A stretch of 54,148 nt of DNA, taken from contig JAJYMC010000030.1 in the NCBI GenBank assembly GCA_021787335.1, forward strand, positions 1 to 54,148, read 5' to 3'. The notes under the pieces were generated by a model. It was not told the origin of the DNA. It was given only the letters and a program-made list of their open reading frames with translations, and searched no databases. Made by a program: the position numbers and the translations under genes. This DNA is from Bacillota bacterium (GTDB lineage Bacteria > Bacillota > Sulfobacillia > JAJYWN01 > JAJZPE01). Below, in pieces: positions 45,143 through 54,148 of this stretch. Numbering within the stretch: position 1 is the first letter of the stretch; each line of letters begins with the position of its first letter.

Positions 45143-45487
45143 GCGACCCCGTGGCCGATGGCAAGGGCCGCGTCACCGTGGTCGAGGCAGACGAGGGCCC
45201 GGGCCGGCCTGACCCTCGACGACATCGGCCTCATCGAACTCAACGAGGCCTTCGCCGCGCAGTCCATCGCCGTGCTGCGCGACCTCGGCCTCGATCCCTT
45301 CGACCCGCGGGTGAACCCCAACGGTGGGGCCATCGCCCTGGGACATCCCCTGGGCTGCAGCGGGGCCCGTATCCTGACGACTCTGCTCCACGAGATGAAG
45401 CGCCGCCCCGACGTCCTTTACGGCCTGGCGACCATGTGCGTCGGGGTCGGGCAGGGCGAGGCGACCATCGTCGAGCGGCTGGACTGA
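45139..45487 (+). pseudogene. Acetyl-CoA acetyltransferase (thiolase) remnant
   Basis: The first part reads [15 protein letters not shown], a mid-protein thiolase motif. After a frame change it jumps to [20 protein letters not shown], then [19 protein letters not shown] and [16 protein letters not shown], the C-terminal half with the catalytic His and Cys. About 280 N-terminal residues, including the nucleophile, and an internal stretch are missing. It follows the SDR directly, so it is a decayed partner gene. Confidence 0.75.
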
Positions 45488-46062: not shown

Positions 46063-46353
46063 TCAGAGAGCCGCCCGAATCGCTTCCTTGATCCTCTCCA
46101 CGTTCGGCACGCTCAGGTTCTCCAAGGGTTTCGAGAACGGGATGGGGATGTCCAGGCCGGCGCGCCGGACCATCGGCTTCTTCAGCAGTCCGAAGCCTTC
46201 TCCGCCGGCGAAGAGCGCCCCGACCTCCGTCCCGACGCCGCCGGTGACCGCACCCTCCTCGACGACCACCAGCCGCCCGGTCCTGCGGACCGAAGCCAGC
46301 AGGGTCTCGCGGTCGAAGGGGACCAGCGTCCGCGGGTCGATGACCTCCACGTC
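46063..46353 (-). pseudogene. Truncated E1-beta (2-oxoacid dehydrogenase) 3' fragment
   Basis: The last 96 codons of an E1 component beta subunit (DVEVIDPRTLVPFDRETLLA ... PMVRRAGLDIPIPFSKPLEN) match the 3' end of the gene at 53507-54148. By eye the DNA is roughly 80-90% identical over about 290 bp. Similarity stops at about 46353, where the lower-GC sactipeptide island begins. There is no N-terminal part, so it is a relic left by insertion or duplication. Confidence 0.85.
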
Positions 46354-46390
46354 GGACTCTTACGTTTCTCTATACCGCGGACTCCGAAAT

Positions 46391-46406: not shown

Positions 46407-46468
46407 AGGCTGCGTTTCCCAATGAGCGAACACCTCTTTCGAATGACCGGCGAAAGGAGGTGTTACTC

Positions 46469-46600
46469 ATGGACCAGCCCGTGGTGACCCCGGACAACGC
46501 GTGTGCTTGGTGTTCCATCTGTGCCATTTGCTGGCTTGATGGTCCGGTCCCAGATTTCGAGGGATTCAGTATTGCGTCTCTTTGGGGTTTGTTTGCCTAA
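46469..46600 (+). CDS. sboA: Subtilosin A-like sactipeptide precursor with four cysteines
   Basis: This 43-residue peptide is the same length as Bacillus SboA. AAGGAGGT lies 7 bases before the ATG. The core reads CAWCSICAIC then WLDGPVPDFEG; subtilosin has CATCSIGAAC then LVDGPIPDFE, so the hairpin turn DGPxPDFE is nearly identical. Cys12, Cys15 and Cys21 align with the three subtilosin donors; Cys18 is new. Acceptor positions are Phe30, Phe33, Ala36 and Trp39, spaced three apart like the cysteines. Mature peptide would begin near Asn10. It is invisible in long-ORF lists because of its size. Confidence 0.92.
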   Translation: MDQPVVTPDNACAWCSICAICWLDGPVPDFEGFSIASLWGLFA

Positions 46601-46616
46601 ACGGCCGGGGGTGAGG

Positions 46617-46649
46617 CCTCAGAGAGGGTTGATTCAGCTCTCTCTGAGG
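46617..46649 (+). promoter_or_regulatory. Hairpin between precursor and maturase genes
   Basis: A perfect 10-bp stem, CCTCAGAGAG/CTCTCTGAGG, has a 13-base loop and no T tract. It probably lowers read-through or stabilises the precursor mRNA, keeping precursor in excess over the maturase, as is common in RiPP operons. Confidence 0.65.
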
Positions 46650-46704
46650 TCAGTGTTATGTGGGGCTTCTTTGAAGGTCGGGAAGAAGCCTGTGCGGGAG
46701 GGCG

Positions 46705-48162
46705 ATGGTTGACATGGATGTGCTGAACCTATACCCCAGCCCCCGGGTTCGCATGCAACTCCACCTGAATCCAATCTCCAGCTCGGTTATGGTGCCGAGG
46801 GATTCTATCAAGACTAGGGCTGGATCCACGGAAAACCTAATGAATCTCAATAGAACAGCGGCCGAGATTCTTGTCATGTGTGACGGATCCATTACCGGGG
46901 AGAGAATCCTAGTCCGTCTCTGCAACCAATACGGGAAACCCGTGGAAGAGAAGCGGCCTTGGGTCCGAGACTTCCTAATACAGGTACAGGGACTGGGATT
47001 GCTGGACTTTTCGGAGACGCCTACCCCCGGAGGGCCATCCATTTCGGTCACGGGCTCTTTCACCCATCCGACCCCCGCTCATGCGACGGTTGAACTCCTT
47101 TCGCGGTGCGATCTGAGATGCCGGCACTGCTACTATGAAGCTTCCCCCGAGGCCGACGAGGTGATGCCTTATGAACGTGCCGCTGAACTGTTTGAATTGC
47201 TGAGCCGGCACGGGGTACTCGGGATCGAGCTTACGGGGGGTGAAGCGCTCATTCACCCCGACTTCCAACGCATCTTCCGGTGTGCAGTTCAGACCTATGA
47301 GACAGTAGCCCTGCTCACCACCGGAACTCACATCTCGGATGGCATTGCCGACCTGATCGCTAGCTACAGGGAACAGGTGGTCGTCAGCGTTTCCCTGGAT
47401 GCCCCATCGGCTGAGATTCATGACGCCTTCAGGGGGGCTAAGGGGGCTTTTGACCGAACATGCGCTGGGATACGACGGCTCAGCAAACGTGGTGTCGTTT
47501 CCCGCGTCAGCATGAGTGTCTTCGAAGACAATAAATGGCTCATCGAGAATACTCTCATACTAGCCAGAGAATTAGGAGCGCGGTTGTTCACCTACGAAAA
47601 GGTCGAGCCGTTTGGGCGTGGGCGTGAGCTGGAGATTCGGTTCACGGCCGACGAATATGCCCGATACGCAGATTATGAAAAGGATTTGCACCGGAAGTAC
47701 GCTTCTTTCATCGGGATGATGACCACCGAGCAAATGGCCCGGTATAATCAACAGCATAACTGCGGGGCCGGTTGGCGTTCGGTGGCCATCAGTCCTTTGG
47801 GCGTGGTTAGACCCTGCGTGATGGCCCCCAAAGGCTTCATGGACTTGGGGAACATCTTCACCCAATCTTACGAAGAGGTATTTGGGAGTCCACTGGTGCG
47901 TAGGCTGATGGAACTCCGAGCGCCCGTCAAGGGTACCACTTGCCCGCCCGATTGCAAGAGCAGGTACTTCTGTAGGGGGTGCTTTGTCCGGGGTTTTAGG
48001 ACGAATACTGTGTCCGCCCCGCGTACCTGCTCTTGGATCAAGGACAATATGATGGGAGGACACCTCAACAGCTTAATTGAGCTGGAAGCCGTAAGCGGAA
48101 TGCCCCGGGCTGAGGAGTCTATCGATCACGCCGACGGGCATCGTGGGGGGGACCGAGCATAG
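46705..48162 (+). CDS. albA: AlbA-type radical SAM/SPASM sactionine synthase
   Basis: This 485-residue maturase has an N-terminal PqqD-like recognition domain (residues 40-105: NLNRTAAEILVMCDGSITGE). The radical SAM motif is Cys135-Cys139-Cys142 in SRCDLRCRHCYYEASPEA, followed by IELTGGEALIHPD and VSMSVFEDNKWL. The SPASM domain has NCGAGWRSVAISPLGVVRPC and CKSRYFCRGCFVRG. Sequence order and long identical stretches match Bacillus AlbA, which links Cys sulfur to alpha-carbons in subtilosin. The start may be ATG 46705 or 46714. It is 105 bp downstream of the precursor gene. Confidence 0.93.
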   Translation: MVDMDVLNLYPSPRVRMQLHLNPISSSVMVPRDSIKTRAGSTENLMNLNRTAAEILVMCDGSITGERILVRLCNQYGKPVEEKRPWVRDFLIQVQGLGLLDFSETPTPGGPSISVTGSFTHPTPAHATVELLSRCDLRCRHCYYEASPEADEVMPYERAAELFELLSRHGVLGIELTGGEALIHPDFQRIFRCAVQTYETVALLTTGTHISDGIADLIASYREQVVVSVSLDAPSAEIHDAFRGAKGAFDRTCAGIRRLSKRGVVSRVSMSVFEDNKWLIENTLILARELGARLFTYEKVEPFGRGRELEIRFTADEYARYADYEKDLHRKYASFIGMMTTEQMARYNQQHNCGAGWRSVAISPLGVVRPCVMAPKGFMDLGNIFTQSYEEVFGSPLVRRLMELRAPVKGTTCPPDCKSRYFCRGCFVRGFRTNTVSAPRTCSWIKDNMMGGHLNSLIELEAVSGMPRAEESIDHADGHRGGDRA

Positions 48163-48173
48163 AAAGCACTGAA

Positions 48174-48929
48174 TTGGCGCAGCCCCAGACACCGGTCCTG
48201 CAGGTTGCCGGCCTAACGAAGTGCTACCACACGAAAGAAGCGGTCAAGGACCTTTCATTTGTCGTAAACCCCGGTGAAATCGTTGGCCTCTTGGGTCCGA
48301 ACGGAGCCGGGAAGACAACAACCATGAAGACGATCGTCGGCCTGCTCCGGCCAACCCAAGGGGAGGTGTTCATCGAGGGGATATCCGTCCTGCGGGATCC
48401 CGTCAGAGCGAAACGACTCCTCTTCTTTGTGCCGGATTCACCGTCGCCGTTTTCGAGCATGACCGGCCTCGAGTATATTCGTTTTGTCGCCTCGGCCTAC
48501 GGCTTACCCCCTCGGGAGAGGCAAGCCCGGGTGGTCTCGTATCTGCGGGAGCTGAAGCTTGAAAATGATCTTCCGAGGAGGGTTTCCGGCTACTCCCGCG
48601 GCATGAAGCAGAAGCTGGTACTAGTTGCGGCATTCATGGTCCGCCCTCGCCTATTGATGTTGGATGAGCCGGTCAGCGGGCTCGATACGCTGGCCATAGC
48701 CCGTCTGAAATCGTTCCTGAGGGAACACATAGAGGCCGGCCGCAGCGTGCTTCTGTCAACACATCTGATGTTCCTGGCTGAACAGCTTTGTGACCGGCTG
48801 GTCATCCTGTCCCGTGGGAAGCTTGTCACCTCGGGCACCATGACTGCCATTCGCGCCCGGAGCGGCGATGAACAAGCAACTCTGGAGGAGATTTTCCTGG
48901 AGATGACCGACGATGGCCGCCAGGTCTGA
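48174..48929 (+). CDS. ABC transporter ATP-binding protein (AlbC-like)
   Basis: This 251-residue ATPase has Walker A GLLGPNGAGKTTT, the signature VSGYSRGMKQKLVL and Walker B RLLMLDEPVSGLD, with the H-loop in STHLMFL. The MKQ signature is typical of ABC-2 type systems. It is TTG-started and overlaps the next gene by 17 bases, so the two act together. In the subtilosin cluster AlbC has the same role in export or immunity. Confidence 0.88.
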   Translation: MAQPQTPVLQVAGLTKCYHTKEAVKDLSFVVNPGEIVGLLGPNGAGKTTTMKTIVGLLRPTQGEVFIEGISVLRDPVRAKRLLFFVPDSPSPFSSMTGLEYIRFVASAYGLPPRERQARVVSYLRELKLENDLPRRVSGYSRGMKQKLVLVAAFMVRPRLLMLDEPVSGLDTLAIARLKSFLREHIEAGRSVLLSTHLMFLAEQLCDRLVILSRGKLVTSGTMTAIRARSGDEQATLEEIFLEMTDDGRQV

Positions 48930-50487
48930 CGCCGGCTCCACCTGGGCGCTGTTCCTCTATACGTTCCGTGATGCCTTCCGCCTTGGGAAGCTCGGAATTG
49001 GACGATTCCTGGCCATGGCAGTGTTAGGCGTTATCGGCCTGAAGTATCTTATCAGCCTCTACATTTCGGCGTTTGCCCTTCTGGGCCCGCCCCGGCTCGC
49101 CTTCAACCTGATTGTCGGTGCCGCGTTCGGTCTCCAAGGCCTTTTGTTTTACCTCGGCTTCATCTGGCTATTGGGTTCATTGTACCTGCACGACGAGATT
49201 GAAAACCTTCTGTCGTTGCCGTACTCGGAATATCGAGTGATGATGGCCTTCTTCCTCCCCGCCCTTGGGCGTGCCTATTTGGCTGAATGCCTCATGGTGG
49301 GGCCGTTAATAGCGGCTTTTGCGTTATCGTATGGACCGGCGCCCGTGGTGTGGCCGCGGTTGATCGGGCTGCTTGCCCTATTGCCAGCGATAGCCTTGGG
49401 GATGGCACTGCTCTTTCTGATGTTCCTGGTGGCCCGGGTGGCGGGCGGTGGGCGCTTATTGGTCCTGGCCGCCTCGGGGGTCATACTCCTTGCGGCCGGC
49501 GTGTCGTTTCGCAACCAGGCCGGAATGGCCACCGAGACACTCTGGGCAGCAACGGCGTCCCCGTTTTTCTGGATATTAACGGCCGGCTTGGTGGTGTCCA
49601 TTTCGGCTGCCGCTTGGGAAGCGGTTCCCCGCTGGTGGATCCGCGGGCGGGAGTTCGTCTCAGCCGACCGGGAAAGGAAGGCCCGCAGGCCGTATTCAGA
49701 CGCCGGGCTGCTGAGTAGGGGAGGGAGGCTGACCACCACCGCCTTCGTCCGCCGGGAGTGGGCCCTGTTCTTCTCCGTTCCGCCCTATGTGGTCAACTAC
49801 GTGGCGACGGCGGCCGTCGGAACCCTTCTCCCGCTCCTCACAGTGCGACAGCTCACTACCGGGGCGGTGGATTACTTCGGGCGGCTTCTCGCAGACGGCA
49901 AGTCACCATACGTATTGGTATCACTCGCTATCATCAACATCCTGGGCCTTATCATGTCATCTTCTCTAACTGCCTTTTCGCGTGAGGGCACGGAATGGTG
50001 GGCGCTGCGGGCACTCCCGGTATCCCTGGCGCGTGTAGTGATAGCAAAGCTGATTGCCAATGGAGCCTTGGACATACTAGGGACTATGCCCGCTCTTCTT
50101 GCGGTTCTGATTCTTTTCCCTCTCTCCGGTCCGCTTCGAATAGCGCTATTCATGGACGCAGTTCTATCTTCATGCCTGCAGATGACGGTGAGGCTTGCCG
50201 TGGATATGACCCACCCCACTTTCGAATGGACCGAACCGCTCCAACCGATGCGCGGTCCGAAGCGCTACGCGTCCTACGCAGTCAATCTGGTGTTGATCCT
50301 CGGCTCTGGGGCTCTGGCAGCCATGTCCCCCTGGATTGGCGAACATCTGGGGACCGTCTATCTGCTGGAACTCGGAGCCCTCGAAATGCTAGAGGCGCTG
50401 TCATTAGTCGTCTTGCTTCTGGCGCAAGCGGGCAAAGCAGAACGCGGTAACAACCTGCTGTTGAGTCGGCTGGTCAACCAGGGGTAG
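48913..50487 (+). CDS. ABC-2-like membrane subunit (AlbD-like position)
   Basis: This 524-residue protein has about 12 predicted membrane helices (IGRFLAMAVLGVIGLKYLI, FGLQGLLFYLGFIWLLGSLY, IGLLALLPAIALGMALLFL). A FSREGTEWWALRALPVSLARVVIAK segment follows, typical of ABC-2 permeases with large cytoplasmic loops. It overlaps the ATPase gene, so it is its partner. It occupies the albD place but is longer; homology to AlbD itself could not be shown by eye. Confidence 0.8.
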   Translation: MAARSDAGSTWALFLYTFRDAFRLGKLGIGRFLAMAVLGVIGLKYLISLYISAFALLGPPRLAFNLIVGAAFGLQGLLFYLGFIWLLGSLYLHDEIENLLSLPYSEYRVMMAFFLPALGRAYLAECLMVGPLIAAFALSYGPAPVVWPRLIGLLALLPAIALGMALLFLMFLVARVAGGGRLLVLAASGVILLAAGVSFRNQAGMATETLWAATASPFFWILTAGLVVSISAAAWEAVPRWWIRGREFVSADRERKARRPYSDAGLLSRGGRLTTTAFVRREWALFFSVPPYVVNYVATAAVGTLLPLLTVRQLTTGAVDYFGRLLADGKSPYVLVSLAIINILGLIMSSSLTAFSREGTEWWALRALPVSLARVVIAKLIANGALDILGTMPALLAVLILFPLSGPLRIALFMDAVLSSCLQMTVRLAVDMTHPTFEWTEPLQPMRGPKRYASYAVNLVLILGSGALAAMSPWIGEHLGTVYLLELGALEMLEALSLVVLLLAQAGKAERGNNLLLSRLVNQG

Positions 50488-50586
50488 TGTTCCGAGAAAA
50501 TTTATCCAGAAATAGAAGAAGGAGGGTATACGCCGGTAAGAGAATTATCCCAACAGGTAGGCGTGATGGACCAAGGGGGCGCCGAA

Positions 50587-52416
50587 ATGATGGGGAGTCG
50601 TGAACCAAAAGCCAGGACTGGGTCCCGTGATTGCCTGCGTCGGTTCGTTCTAGATATGAAGGGGCTCTGGTTCTCCTGGGGTGTTATCATCGCTCTCATC
50701 AACTTTGCCGCCGTGCCATCTGTTCTATCGCCCCTGATCATACGAACCCTAATTGACCGAGCGCTTGCGGAACTACAGTTCAGCCTGTTTCTGTGGCTCA
50801 CTTTGGCCTTGGTGGGACTGTATGTCCTGCAATTGACACTATGGGCAGCAAGAGACTACCTTCAGAAAGCAACGGCTCAAAGGGCCATACTCAAGCTCAG
50901 GATTCGCCTGTTCGGGAAGCTGACCCGGATGAGGCGCTCCTTTTATCTTCAACACCCCGGCGGCGAGCTAATCAGTCGTTTGGAGAGCGATGTCACTCAG
51001 GCCGAGGCCCTGGCATCTCATCTCCTTGCCGCCACTTTGAGTGAGGGCCTGATGGTCCTCTACGCCCTGGTCGCCATGGCCATCCTCAATATCTACATGT
51101 GCTTGAGCGTGCTGTCCGCTTTCCCCCTCCTGCTCATGGTGCAGAAACGTTACAGTGCCCAGGTCCGGAGCACCACGATAAAATCCCGACAAGCACAGGC
51201 CGGGTTGCTGGCTGTCCTGCAGGAAACACTCCTGGGTCTGGAATGGATTCAGAATGTGGCTGGCGAGAAAAGGGCCGGTAAGCGCTACTTGCTGCAAGCT
51301 AGGCAGGTCATCGCCCGGCAATTGGAGGCGGCTAGGATTGCGGTACTCGTCTCTTCGGGCCTCGGCCTCAACGGCATAGTCATAGCGATGATTGCGTACG
51401 GCCTCGGAGGGTACTTTGTCCTTATCGGCGTCTTCACGATCGGTACGCTTATCGCCTTTAAGAGCTACCTGGACCGTTTCACGACCTCTCTTTCAGTCGT
51501 GGCTCAGCTATGGGTCGACGCCGAAAGGAGTTTGGCCTGTCTTGAGCGGGTCTATTGGCTCCTGGACCATCCTGACGAGCTGAAGCGTGGAGGGCGGCAA
51601 CCACGACACATTGCCGGGCGAATCCAGTGCCGGGACGTCAGCCTTTCCTCGGCCGGCCAGCCCATTCTGAGCCGTCTAAACATGGACATTGACGAGAACG
51701 AATTCGTGGCTGTGGTCGGCCCCAACGGGTCTGGGAAGAGCACGGTGGTCAATCTCCTGCTTCGTCAGGTGGATCCCGACGCAGGGGAGATCCGCCTTGA
51801 TGAACACCCCTTGTCACAGTATGACCCAGTCTCGCTTCGAAGGCGCATAGGAATAGTCTCAGATCGTCACTTCTTCTTCTTTTCCACGGTTCGAGATAAT
51901 CTTATCTTCATGAAACCGAATGCCAGCAAGGAGGAACTCAGCCACGCTTTAGAGCAAGTGGGACTGGGCCAGTGGATCCGGGGCTTACCTGACGGGTTTG
52001 ATACTGTCGTCGGGGAACGAGGCCTGCGCCTCTCGTCCGGTGAGCGTCAACGATTGGCGATTGCCAGAGTCCTCCTTCAGGACCCCGATGTAGTCATCCT
52101 TGATGAAGCCACGTCTTCCTTTGATAATTTGGCTGAGCGTGACATCTATAGAGTGCTGAACGAACGGTTTCGCGGCAAGAAGACGATTCTGCTTGTCACT
52201 CACCGTCTTACGGTGGTCCCAGGCACGGATCGTATTTTCGTCATAGACCAGGGTCGAGTAGTCGAGACCGGCAACCACCAACAGCTGGCTAATCGACCGG
52301 GCGGTCTCTATCGGAGATTATGGGAGGCGGCTCAAGGGGACGGGGGTGACCCGTTGGGCGTGGGTCGACCCCAGTCCGAGACCGCCTTTGTGACTCTGGC
52401 TACTCCCCCCCTTTAA
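50587..52416 (+). CDS. ABC exporter with fused TMD-NBD
   Basis: About 609 residues. An exporter-type membrane domain (SWGVIIALINFAAVPSVLSP, RTLIDRALAELQFSLFLWLT) is followed by an ATPase: Walker A VVGPNGSGKSTVVNL, signature LSSGERQRLAIARVL, Walker B VVILDEATSSFD, H-loop LLVTHRLT. There is no C39 peptidase domain, so it is not a leader-cleaving exporter. ATG 50587 follows AAGGGGG; a GTG at 50563 is also possible. It probably exports or removes the mature sactipeptide. The Bacillus subtilosin cluster lacks an equivalent. Confidence 0.88.
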   Translation: MMGSREPKARTGSRDCLRRFVLDMKGLWFSWGVIIALINFAAVPSVLSPLIIRTLIDRALAELQFSLFLWLTLALVGLYVLQLTLWAARDYLQKATAQRAILKLRIRLFGKLTRMRRSFYLQHPGGELISRLESDVTQAEALASHLLAATLSEGLMVLYALVAMAILNIYMCLSVLSAFPLLLMVQKRYSAQVRSTTIKSRQAQAGLLAVLQETLLGLEWIQNVAGEKRAGKRYLLQARQVIARQLEAARIAVLVSSGLGLNGIVIAMIAYGLGGYFVLIGVFTIGTLIAFKSYLDRFTTSLSVVAQLWVDAERSLACLERVYWLLDHPDELKRGGRQPRHIAGRIQCRDVSLSSAGQPILSRLNMDIDENEFVAVVGPNGSGKSTVVNLLLRQVDPDAGEIRLDEHPLSQYDPVSLRRRIGIVSDRHFFFFSTVRDNLIFMKPNASKEELSHALEQVGLGQWIRGLPDGFDTVVGERGLRLSSGERQRLAIARVLLQDPDVVILDEATSSFDNLAERDIYRVLNERFRGKKTILLVTHRLTVVPGTDRIFVIDQGRVVETGNHQQLANRPGGLYRRLWEAAQGDGGDPLGVGRPQSETAFVTLATPPL

Positions 52417-52472: not shown

Positions 52473-52634
52473 ATGGCGAGACTCACGTATCGGCTCCTGG
52501 TGTTGGTCCTCTTCATCTATATGGCGATAACCAACATCGGGAGCCCCTTATCGCTTCTTCTGGTTTTGGCCAGCATAGTTTGGGCCTTTGACACATACAG
52601 GCGGTTTACGAGGCAGCGTGGCCACCGGCCCTGA
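52473..52634 (+). CDS. 53-residue membrane protein (AlbB-sized immunity candidate)
   Basis: This short gene encodes a peptide with two hydrophobic stretches (LLVLVLFIYMAITNIG and LSLLLVLASIVWAF) and a basic end (YRRFTRQRG). The ATG at 52473 has AGGGAAAG upstream. Bacillus AlbB, also 53 residues and membrane-bound, lies in the subtilosin operon and helps immunity. Position and size fit such a role; sequence homology is not demonstrable by eye. Confidence 0.65.
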   Translation: MARLTYRLLVLVLFIYMAITNIGSPLSLLLVLASIVWAFDTYRRFTRQRGHRP

Positions 52635-52649
52635 AGGAGTCAATGATCA

Positions 52650-53366
52650 ATGCCATACTGTATTCGAATGGTCGTAATCGATAGTCAGCCTCTCTTCGTC
52701 CGGGGCTTGGTTGATGCCTTGAACGGGGGGACCGACATAAAGGTGGTCGGGACGGCACAAGACTCTGCAACGGGCATGACCCTTTGCCTGCAGAGTCATC
52801 CGGATGTCATATTGCTCGCTCTCGATCTCTGCGACGCCGATGGATTGACCTTCCTTCAATCTATACTGCACAAAGAACCCCGCGCCCACGTGGCCATTCT
52901 GGCCATAGAAGACAGTCCTCTCATCGCGAAGGACGCTCTTGCTGCGGGAGCACGGGGATACATGGTCAAGACGTCCAACGCCTCGCGTGTTCGTCAGATG
53001 GTTCTTGAGGTGGGCTGCGGAAGGGTTTGGGTTGACCCAGTGGTCTTGGCGAAAGCGCCGTTGTTGAAAACCTCCCCCCGCGATCGTAAGAGCAATCGCG
53101 GGGAACTAACCAGCCGTGAGCGGGAGGTAGCACGACTCACTTTGAAGCACCACGGCAATGTGAGCAAAGTTGCCACAGAGCTTTATTCCTCTCAGAGCGT
53201 CGTGCGGTATCATCTGTCGAACATCTATCGAAAGCTCGGCTGTCAAGGCATCGGAGACTTGGTCCTGCAGCTAAGTCAGAGCAGGTGGGACTTTGCGCCC
53301 ACCCGGAGCCCGCCACCGACAACGCAGAATGCCTCATCCAGAAATGAGCCTGATAGCCTCACCTAG
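52650..53366 (+). CDS. NarL-family orphan regulator with degenerate receiver domain
   Basis: This 238-residue protein has an N-terminal receiver domain (MVVIDSQPLFVRGLVDAL). The phospho-acceptor position in VILLALDLCDADG is Ala57 instead of Asp, although Lys (MVKTSN) is conserved. The C-terminal LuxR-type HTH reads LTSREREVARLTLK ... VVRYHLSNIYRKLG. It is therefore likely phosphorylation-independent. No histidine kinase is nearby. As last gene of the sactipeptide operon it probably controls the cluster, perhaps through the inverted repeat at 46391. Confidence 0.85.
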   Translation: MPYCIRMVVIDSQPLFVRGLVDALNGGTDIKVVGTAQDSATGMTLCLQSHPDVILLALDLCDADGLTFLQSILHKEPRAHVAILAIEDSPLIAKDALAAGARGYMVKTSNASRVRQMVLEVGCGRVWVDPVVLAKAPLLKTSPRDRKSNRGELTSREREVARLTLKHHGNVSKVATELYSSQSVVRYHLSNIYRKLGCQGIGDLVLQLSQSRWDFAPTRSPPPTTQNASSRNEPDSLT

Positions 53367-53506: not shown

Positions 53507-54148
53507 TTACCGCGCTGCGCTCCTGACGGCCTTCTTGATCCTCTCCGCGCTCGGTACGCTCAGGTTCTCCAAGGGCTTGGCGAACGGGATCGGGATGTCC
53601 AGGCCGGCGCACCGGACCATGGGCTTCTTCAACAGCCCGAAACCCTCCCCGGTGGCGAACAGCGCTCCGACCTCGGCCCCGACGCCGCCGGTCACCGCGC
53701 CCTCCTCGACGACCACCAGCCGGCCGGTCCGGCGGACCGAGGCCAGAAGGGTCTCACGGTCGAAGGGGACAAGCGTCCGCGGGTCGATGACCTCGACGTC
53801 GAGGCCGTCCTCGGCGGCCAGCTCGTCGGCGGCCGTCAGGGCCAGCGGGACCATCCCCAAGACGGCCAACACCGTCACGTCCTTGCCCGGCCGCTTGATG
53901 TCGGCCACGCCGAATGGGATCATGTACTGCTCCTCGGGCACCTGTCCGTCGGTGAAGTAGAGCAGCTTGTGCTCGAAGAAAAGGACCGGGTTGTCGCTGC
54001 GGAGGGCCGTGGTCAGGAGGCCCTTGGCGTCGTATGGGCTCGAGGCGACGACCACCTTCAGCCCCGGGACATGCATGAATAGGGCCTCCAGGCTCTGCGA
54101 GTGCTGGGCGGCGAAGGCCAGCCCGGTCCCGCCCGGCGTCCGGACCAC
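53507..54148 (-). CDS. 2-oxoacid dehydrogenase E1 component, beta subunit (partial)
   Basis: The last 213 codons of a TPP-dependent E1-beta subunit are present; the 5' end is beyond the window. Landmarks are QHSQSLEALFMHVPGLKVVV, SPYDAKGLLTTALRSDNPVL, FFEHKLLYF and the transketolase C-terminal domain VEVIDPRTLVPFDRETLL. It is part of a pyruvate, acetoin or branched-chain dehydrogenase complex. The C-terminal region is duplicated at 46063. The substrate cannot be fixed without the E1-alpha and E2 neighbours. Confidence 0.9.
   Translation of the reverse strand: MVRTPGGTGLAFAAQHSQSLEALFMHVPGLKVVVASSPYDAKGLLTTALRSDNPVLFFEHKLLYFTDGQVPEEQYMIPFGVADIKRPGKDVTVLAVLGMVPLALTAADELAAEDGLDVEVIDPRTLVPFDRETLLASVRRTGRLVVVEEGAVTGGVGAEVGALFATGEGFGLLKKPMVRCAGLDIPIPFAKPLENLSVPSAERIKKAVRSAAR

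What the first reader, a model, noticed from the sequence alone, without database searches (positions are those of the whole stretch)
46469..46600. Four-cysteine subtilosin relative: a complete 3-residue-spaced thioether ladder
The precursor aligns with Bacillus SboA over its full 43 residues, keeps the DGPxPDFE turn and the three donor Cys (12, 15, 21), and adds Cys18 where SboA has Gly. In subtilosin the bridges are 12-39, 15-36 and 21-30 (precursor numbering); each pair sums to 51. The new Cys18 would pair with residue 33, which is Phe here and Ala in SboA, and Phe is a favoured acceptor. All four donor and acceptor positions are then evenly spaced three apart. I predict a four-sactionine, hairpin-shaped peptide, possibly head-to-tail cyclised.
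Basis: partly seen in the sequence, partly recalled or inferred. Interest (0 to 1): 0.95.

Follow-up and report, generated by a model that had tools for sequence, protein, structure and literature searches.

The report
Four-cysteine subtilosin-type bacteriocin gene cluster
The window holds a gene cluster for a relative of the antibiotic peptide subtilosin A with a fourth cysteine exactly where its ladder of sulfur bridges has a gap, and a culturable bacterium (Aneurinibacillus thermoaerophilus) carries a sister cluster with the same feature, so a four-bridged subtilosin can be tested directly.

Summary
Window 46469-46600 encodes a 43-aa subtilosin-family precursor (PF11420, 38.6 bits; 19/43 identical to SboA without gaps) with Cys12/15/18/21. 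It sits upstream of an AlbA-type radical-SAM/SPASM maturase, an AlbC/AlbD-like ABC pair, an MsbA-type ABC exporter, a 53-aa membrane protein and a LuxR-type regulator. The cluster is a low-GC island between an E1-beta gene and a thiolase that adjoin in two relatives. A scan of about 85,000 species genomes found 19 subtilosin-type loci, three with Cys18. Aneurinibacillus thermoaerophilus shares Cys18, Phe33 and the gene set, and its AlbA is the nearest relative found (44%). I judge a four-thioether peptide probable (about 65%), but bridge 18-33 is inferred. Three corrections. A complete ladder spaced by three is not new: thurincin H has it; what is new is its occurrence in the subtilosin family. 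AlbE and AlbF, the cleavage/cyclisation proteases, are missing from this cluster and its sister, so head-to-tail cyclisation is weakly founded. The predicted acceptors at 36 (Ala) and 39 (Trp) are non-standard. Verdict: new variant of a known kind.

The parts
46453..46468 (+). Shine-Dalgarno region (GAAAGGAGGTGTTACTC) of the precursor gene
   Evidence: Read directly from sequence
46469..46600 (+). Sactipeptide precursor, 43 aa, four donor Cys (12, 15, 18, 21); subtilosin family
   Evidence: PF11420 38.6 bits; phmmer to 1pxq E 5e-7; 19/43 identical to SboA
46615..46651 (+). 17-bp intercistronic RNA stem-loop between precursor and maturase, probably giving precursor excess by partial termination or mRNA protection (role inferred)
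   Evidence: Fold of 46601-46704: -47.8 kcal/mol, z -3.5 against shuffles; terminator-like site
46705..48162 (+). AlbA-type radical-SAM/SPASM sactisynthase with N-terminal RRE (PqqD-like) domain, 485 aa
   Evidence: PF05402, PF04055 and PF13186; NF012164 AlbA best hit, 315 bits (below its equivalog cutoff of 850); all CxxxCxxC and SPASM Cys conserved; predicted fold best matches SkfB 6efn
48174..48929 (+). ABC ATPase, AlbC-like (31% to AlbC, 43% to the Aneurinibacillus homologue)
   Evidence: PF00005; tblastn
48913..50487 (+). ABC permease, distantly AlbD-like
   Evidence: 26% to AlbD over 212 aa, E 8e-7; 28% over full length to the Aneurinibacillus permease
50563..52416 (+). MsbA-type ABC exporter without C39 peptidase domain; not found in the three-Cys loci examined
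   Evidence: PF00664 and PF00005, no peptidase domain; 39% full-length match only in the Aneurinibacillus cluster
52473..52634 (+). 53-aa membrane protein, AlbB-sized; homologous to the 50-aa protein of the Aneurinibacillus cluster
   Evidence: 38% identity, E 2e-6; homology to AlbB itself not shown
52650..53366 (+). LuxR/NarL-type response regulator, likely cluster regulator (inferred from position)
   Evidence: PF00072 and PF00196
46063..46356 (-). 3' fragment of an E1-beta (transketolase-like) gene, left edge of the island
   Evidence: 273-nt direct repeat, 89% identical to 53529-53801
53507..54148 (-). E1-beta gene copy (runs off the contig end), right edge of the island
   Evidence: PF02779 and PF02780; in relatives it lies next to the thiolase without the island

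Best explanation
A horizontally acquired bacteriocin cluster that makes a subtilosin-type sactipeptide with four sulfur-to-alpha-carbon thioethers. Shown by sequence: the precursor, the AlbA-type RRE/radical-SAM/SPASM enzyme, two ABC systems and a regulator sit together in one orientation, and a sister cluster exists in A. thermoaerophilus. Inferred: the RRE binds the leader; the radical-SAM cluster makes a 5'-deoxyadenosyl radical that abstracts the alpha-H of each acceptor; and the SPASM clusters assist C-S bond formation, giving nested bridges 12-39, 15-36, 18-33 and 21-30. The MsbA-type exporter secretes the peptide. The AlbC/D-like ABC pair and the 53-aa membrane protein most likely give immunity. 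Leader removal is done by a protease encoded elsewhere, and the product is more likely linear than head-to-tail cyclic.
For: Precursor family match. Maturase domains, all Fe-S Cys conserved, profile and fold match to SkfB and CteB. Sister cluster in A. thermoaerophilus with Cys18, Phe33, AlbA 44%, exporter 39%, ATPase 43%, permease 28% and the small membrane protein. AlbA tree: window and A. thermoaerophilus pair at 88/87, and placing either with the Bacillus/Staphylococcus AlbAs is rejected (AU p 1.7e-4 and 5.9e-5). Cys18 found in four loci; Phe33 only with Cys18 (2 of 4 against 0 of 14, Fisher p 0.039, not corrected for kinship). Four-rung, 3-spaced ladders are made by another SPASM sactisynthase, ThnB (thurincin H, PMC8172795).
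Against: No bridge was measured. Acceptor Ala36 matches T28A, which B. subtilis AlbA does not process (PMC8172795), although natural homologues L030, L032, L039 and L042 also have Ala36, and Trn-beta and RumC1 use Ala acceptors. Trp is not among the acceptors listed in a review (PMC8326336). Two of the four Cys18 precursors have Ala33, not Phe33. The two Phe33 cases are the sister pair, so the covariation may be one event.
Confidence: 0.65

Rival explanations
1. Three subtilosin-like thioethers form and Cys18 stays free, or makes a disulfide or another link after export.
For: SboA homologues work with three Cys. The other two Cys18 precursors, L028 and L030, carry extra Cys (9 and 19, or 42) and have Ala33. 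Ala36 is a doubtful acceptor for AlbA.
Against: Cys18 lies exactly on the 3-residue spacing and is kept in two clusters whose maturases are only 44% identical, both with Phe33. With no other core Cys in the window or A. thermoaerophilus peptides, an intramolecular disulfide partner is lacking if the other three are bridged.
Confidence: 0.2
2. A four-bridged, head-to-tail cyclic product, with cyclisation by an M16 pair encoded elsewhere in the genome.
For: The SboA-like leader length fits, and the genome has an M16 pair at G000:C24 (446 and 434 aa), one member with HFLEH.
Against: AlbE/AlbF homologues are absent from this cluster and from the A. thermoaerophilus cluster. The C24 pair is far from the cluster and resembles common housekeeping M16 pairs (own knowledge, YmfF/YmfH). 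C-termini of the family vary freely.
Confidence: 0.1
3. The cluster is decayed or silent and makes no peptide.
For: The island is flanked by a truncated E1-beta copy and a truncated thiolase, so the locus has been rearranged. No sigma-70-like promoter was found upstream.
Against: All seven genes are open and full length, all catalytic Cys are kept, ribosome-binding site and intercistronic hairpin are intact.
Confidence: 0.05

Closest known systems
Subtilosin A (SboA/AlbABCDEFG) of Bacillus subtilis
   Same: Ungapped 43-aa precursor with DGPxPDFE turn and donor Cys12/15/21; AlbA-type maturase; AlbC/D-like ABC pair
   Different: Fourth donor Cys18 with Phe33; Ala36 and Trp39 as predicted acceptors; no AlbE, AlbF or AlbG; extra MsbA-type exporter and a LuxR-type regulator
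Uncharacterised cluster of Aneurinibacillus thermoaerophilus L 420-91 (NZ_FNDE01000038.1; L034/L055)
   Same: Cys18 and Phe33, EGF motif after the turn, same gene set apart from the regulator, no AlbE/F
   Different: Gene order (exporter directly after albA), no response regulator, Ser36 and Ala39 at the other acceptor positions; maturase 44% identical
Thurincin H (ThnA/ThnB) of Bacillus thuringiensis
   Same: Four donors spaced by three, acceptors spaced by three, constant pair sum (PMC8172795)
   Different: Inner loop of 5 instead of 8 residues, and (own knowledge) an unrelated core sequence and leader; the predicted set here includes Trp and Ala acceptors
Thuricin Z/huazacin
   Same: Four nested bridges with constant sum
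   Different: Spacing of four, two radical-SAM enzymes
Staphylococcal subtilosin-type peptides (hyicin kind)
   Same: Subtilosin family, same register (L027, L040)
   Different: Three Cys only, Gly18

Membership tests
Subtilosin_A family (PF11420) precursor | Pfam profile match over curated cutoff | tested here: met
   38.6 bits against 25
Subtilosin_A family (PF11420) precursor | Three donor Cys and DGPxPDF turn in register | tested here: met
   Cys12/15/21 and DGPVPDFE
Sactipeptide | Cognate RRE/radical-SAM/SPASM maturase next to the precursor | tested here: met
   PF05402, PF04055, PF13186; conserved Fe-S Cys; SkfB/CteB match
Sactipeptide | Cys S to C-alpha thioethers in the product | not testable with these tools
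   Needs mass spectrometry or NMR
Subtilosin A-type cyclic sactipeptide (sbo-alb cluster) | AlbE and AlbF M16 proteases in the cluster | tested here: not met
   tblastn of B. tequilensis AlbE/F against window: no hit at E 0.01; PF05193 matches in the genome lie on other contigs
Subtilosin A-type cyclic sactipeptide (sbo-alb cluster) | Head-to-tail cyclic backbone | not testable with these tools
   Needs mass spectrometry
AlbA equivalog (NF012164) | Score over equivalog cutoff | tested here: not met
   315 against 850 bits, best of all NCBIfam hits: AlbA-like, not a B. subtilis AlbA equivalog
Thurincin H-type four-rung ladder | Donors and acceptors both spaced by three | tested here: inconclusive
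   Donor spacing met; acceptors are only predicted

The most novel reading that the evidence does not exclude
The four-Cys clusters are a separate, early branch of the subtilosin family that makes linear, four-rung ladder peptides without AlbE/F. The 6-residue gap in the subtilosin A ladder would then be a lost rung (Cys18 and acceptor 33), not the original state.
Probability: 0.2. Interest if true: 0.6.

Novelty: new variant of a known kind. Interest (0 to 1): 0.48.

Why it matters
It makes the register rule of sactisynthases directly testable. One added Cys at the skipped rung, with or without Phe33, asks whether an AlbA-type enzyme counts register along the hairpin or reads each acceptor's identity. 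A natural pair of maturases that process three or four rungs on nearly the same scaffold is useful for engineering stapled peptides. The sister cluster is in a culturable type strain, so the product can be sought without the unnamed host. Finding clusters without AlbE/F would separate thioether formation from macrocyclisation within one family.

Tried and rejected
Search of 101 relatives with the precursor gave only chance-level hits (best E 0.003); the two best, L002 and L003, lack a C..C.....C..[DNE]G motif. Search of the 154 genomes of the class with the maturase gave two distant radical-SAM proteins only (L023, L024), used as outgroup. Plasmid search with the precursor: none; with the maturase: generic radical-SAM proteins at 30% or less. 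PF11420 in the order of A. thermoaerophilus (1 of 15), its class (6 of 399), the class of the Acidobacteria MAG (1 of 93) and the phylum of the Omnitrophota MAG (1 of 14) added no further Cys18 precursor. Whether Cys18 and Phe33 covary was tested and is suggestive only. Whether the four-Cys maturases form one clade: in the best tree but unsupported (65/56 and 42/3). Full-text literature searches found no report of a four-Cys subtilosin, but subscription journals are not held. Absence of AlbE/F is not exclusive to four-Cys clusters: the three-Cys Corynebacterium MAG cluster (L058) also shows none.

Full report
What is there. Window 46469-46600 (+) encodes MDQPVVTPDNACAWCSICAICWLDGPVPDFEGFSIASLWGLFA, 43 aa, with a strong ribosome-binding site. 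It belongs to Pfam Subtilosin_A at 38.6 bits against a cutoff of 25 and matches the solved structure entry of subtilosin A, 1pxq, at E 5e-7. Aligned without gaps to SboA it has 19 of 43 identities. Donors Cys12, 15 and 21 and the turn DGPxPDFE are kept, and Gly18 is Cys. It left out that the residues in the other two acceptor positions differ from SboA: Ala36 for Thr and Trp39 for Phe.

Surroundings. Downstream on the same strand lie a 485-aa AlbA-type enzyme with RRE, radical-SAM and SPASM domains, an AlbC-like ATPase, a distantly AlbD-like permease, an MsbA-type exporter with no C39 peptidase domain, a 53-aa membrane protein and a response regulator. Every cluster-binding Cys of the maturase is conserved against its relatives; a profile of the family finds SkfB and CteB, and the AlphaFold2 model (mean pLDDT 75.7) matches SkfB best, with SuiB and CteB among the next. 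Between precursor and maturase there is a 17-bp hairpin (fold z -3.5), of the sort that gives precursor excess; that role is inferred.

Origin. The cluster is 57% GC with GC3 of 0.59 to 0.72 per gene, against 67 to 69% GC and GC3 of 0.82 to 0.94 in the flanks. It lies between an E1-beta gene and a truncated second copy of that gene's 3' end (273 nt, 89% identical). In a congener and a family member E1-beta lies next to the thiolase with nothing of the cluster between. So the cluster was acquired; the mechanism is not known, and none of the island's genes is an integrase.

Relatives. A degenerate pattern for CxxCx5CxxDGPxPDF, leaving residue 18 free, was scanned against one genome each of about 85,000 species: 19 loci. 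With later hits there are 18 distinct precursors, all in one register. Four have Cys18: the window; A. thermoaerophilus (CAICGGCAACLADGPIPDFEGFGVSIVAGIF); an Acidobacteria MAG, on a 5-kb contig that ends before any maturase (CASCSICALCLADGPIPDFEGAGLAGLFGLCAR); and an Omnitrophota MAG with extra Cys. Phe33 occurs only in the first two (Fisher p 0.039, uncorrected for kinship).

The Aneurinibacillus cluster is the informative one. It holds the precursor, AlbA (44%), the same exporter type (39% over its full length), a 50-aa membrane protein (38%), ATPase (43%) and permease (28%), then unrelated genes. Neither it nor the window has AlbE or AlbF. The exporter was found in no three-Cys locus, though several of those loci are short. 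In the maturase tree the two pair together (88/87), and moving either one to the Bacillus/Staphylococcus AlbAs is rejected (AU p 1.7e-4 and 5.9e-5). The Omnitrophota maturase joins them without support.

Interpretation. The pair-sum rule is not special to this peptide: thurincin H (sum 32), subtilosin A (35 in mature numbering) and thuricin Z (42) all obey it (PMC8172795; computed), because they are nested hairpins. Thurincin H already has four donors and four acceptors each spaced by three. So the architecture is known and its occurrence in a subtilosin scaffold is what is new. If bridges 21-30 and 15-36 form, a nested bridge from Cys18 must end at residues 31 to 35, and regular spacing gives 33. 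That Phe33 is shared with the only other four-Cys cluster of this gene content supports this, but it may be a single inherited change.

Doubts. B. subtilis AlbA does not accept Ala at the Thr28 position (precursor 36) (PMC8172795); this enzyme is only about 35% identical to AlbA and several natural homologues have Ala36, so a different tolerance is plausible. Trp is not in the acceptor list of PMC8326336. Cyclisation: AlbE/AlbF are held responsible for leader cleavage and macrocyclisation (PMC12300986, PMC12731061). They are absent here. The genome has five M16 peptidase matches on other contigs, including a pair at G000:C24 with one HFLEH member, which might act in trans. I put head-to-tail cyclisation at about 10 to 15%.

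Verdict. A real, probably functional, four-Cys subtilosin-type sactipeptide cluster of a rare kind: new variant of a known kind, and directly testable, since one carrier is a culturable type strain.

Noticed in passing
46063-46356 and 53507-54148: 273-nt direct repeat (89%) of the 3' end of an E1-beta gene flanks the cluster; in the coding comparison 23 of 39 changes are synonymous and the fragment's frame is open, so it may come from a functional copy of another lineage brought in with the island.
   Followed up: partly
45158-45487: 3' fragment of a thiolase gene following an SDR gene; relatives G001 and G002 have longer spacing consistent with a full thiolase here, so the locus may also have suffered a deletion.
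   Followed up: partly
L028:4249-4890: Omnitrophota MAG: a subtilosin-type core with six Cys (9, 12, 15, 18, 19, 21) at the end of a 213-aa ORF with an unusually long leader and a Tat-like SRRDLL motif, next to an AlbA-like gene.
   Followed up: no
L029:564-650: Bacillus thermotolerans has a second precursor-like frame (NACSVSTVCVIDGPFPDFEIVGITGTVDISN) that lacks the first donor Cys; it may be decayed or a two-bridge form.
   Followed up: no
L058:9560-13004: Corynebacterium MAG three-Cys subtilosin cluster without detectable AlbE/AlbF and with Trp39/Ala36 acceptor positions like the window.
   Followed up: no
L044: A subtilosin-type cluster with at least two precursor copies, nearly the same as that of Enterococcus devriesei (L043), lies on a contig listed in the viral collection (IMG/VR), possibly prophage-linked or mis-called.
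   Followed up: no
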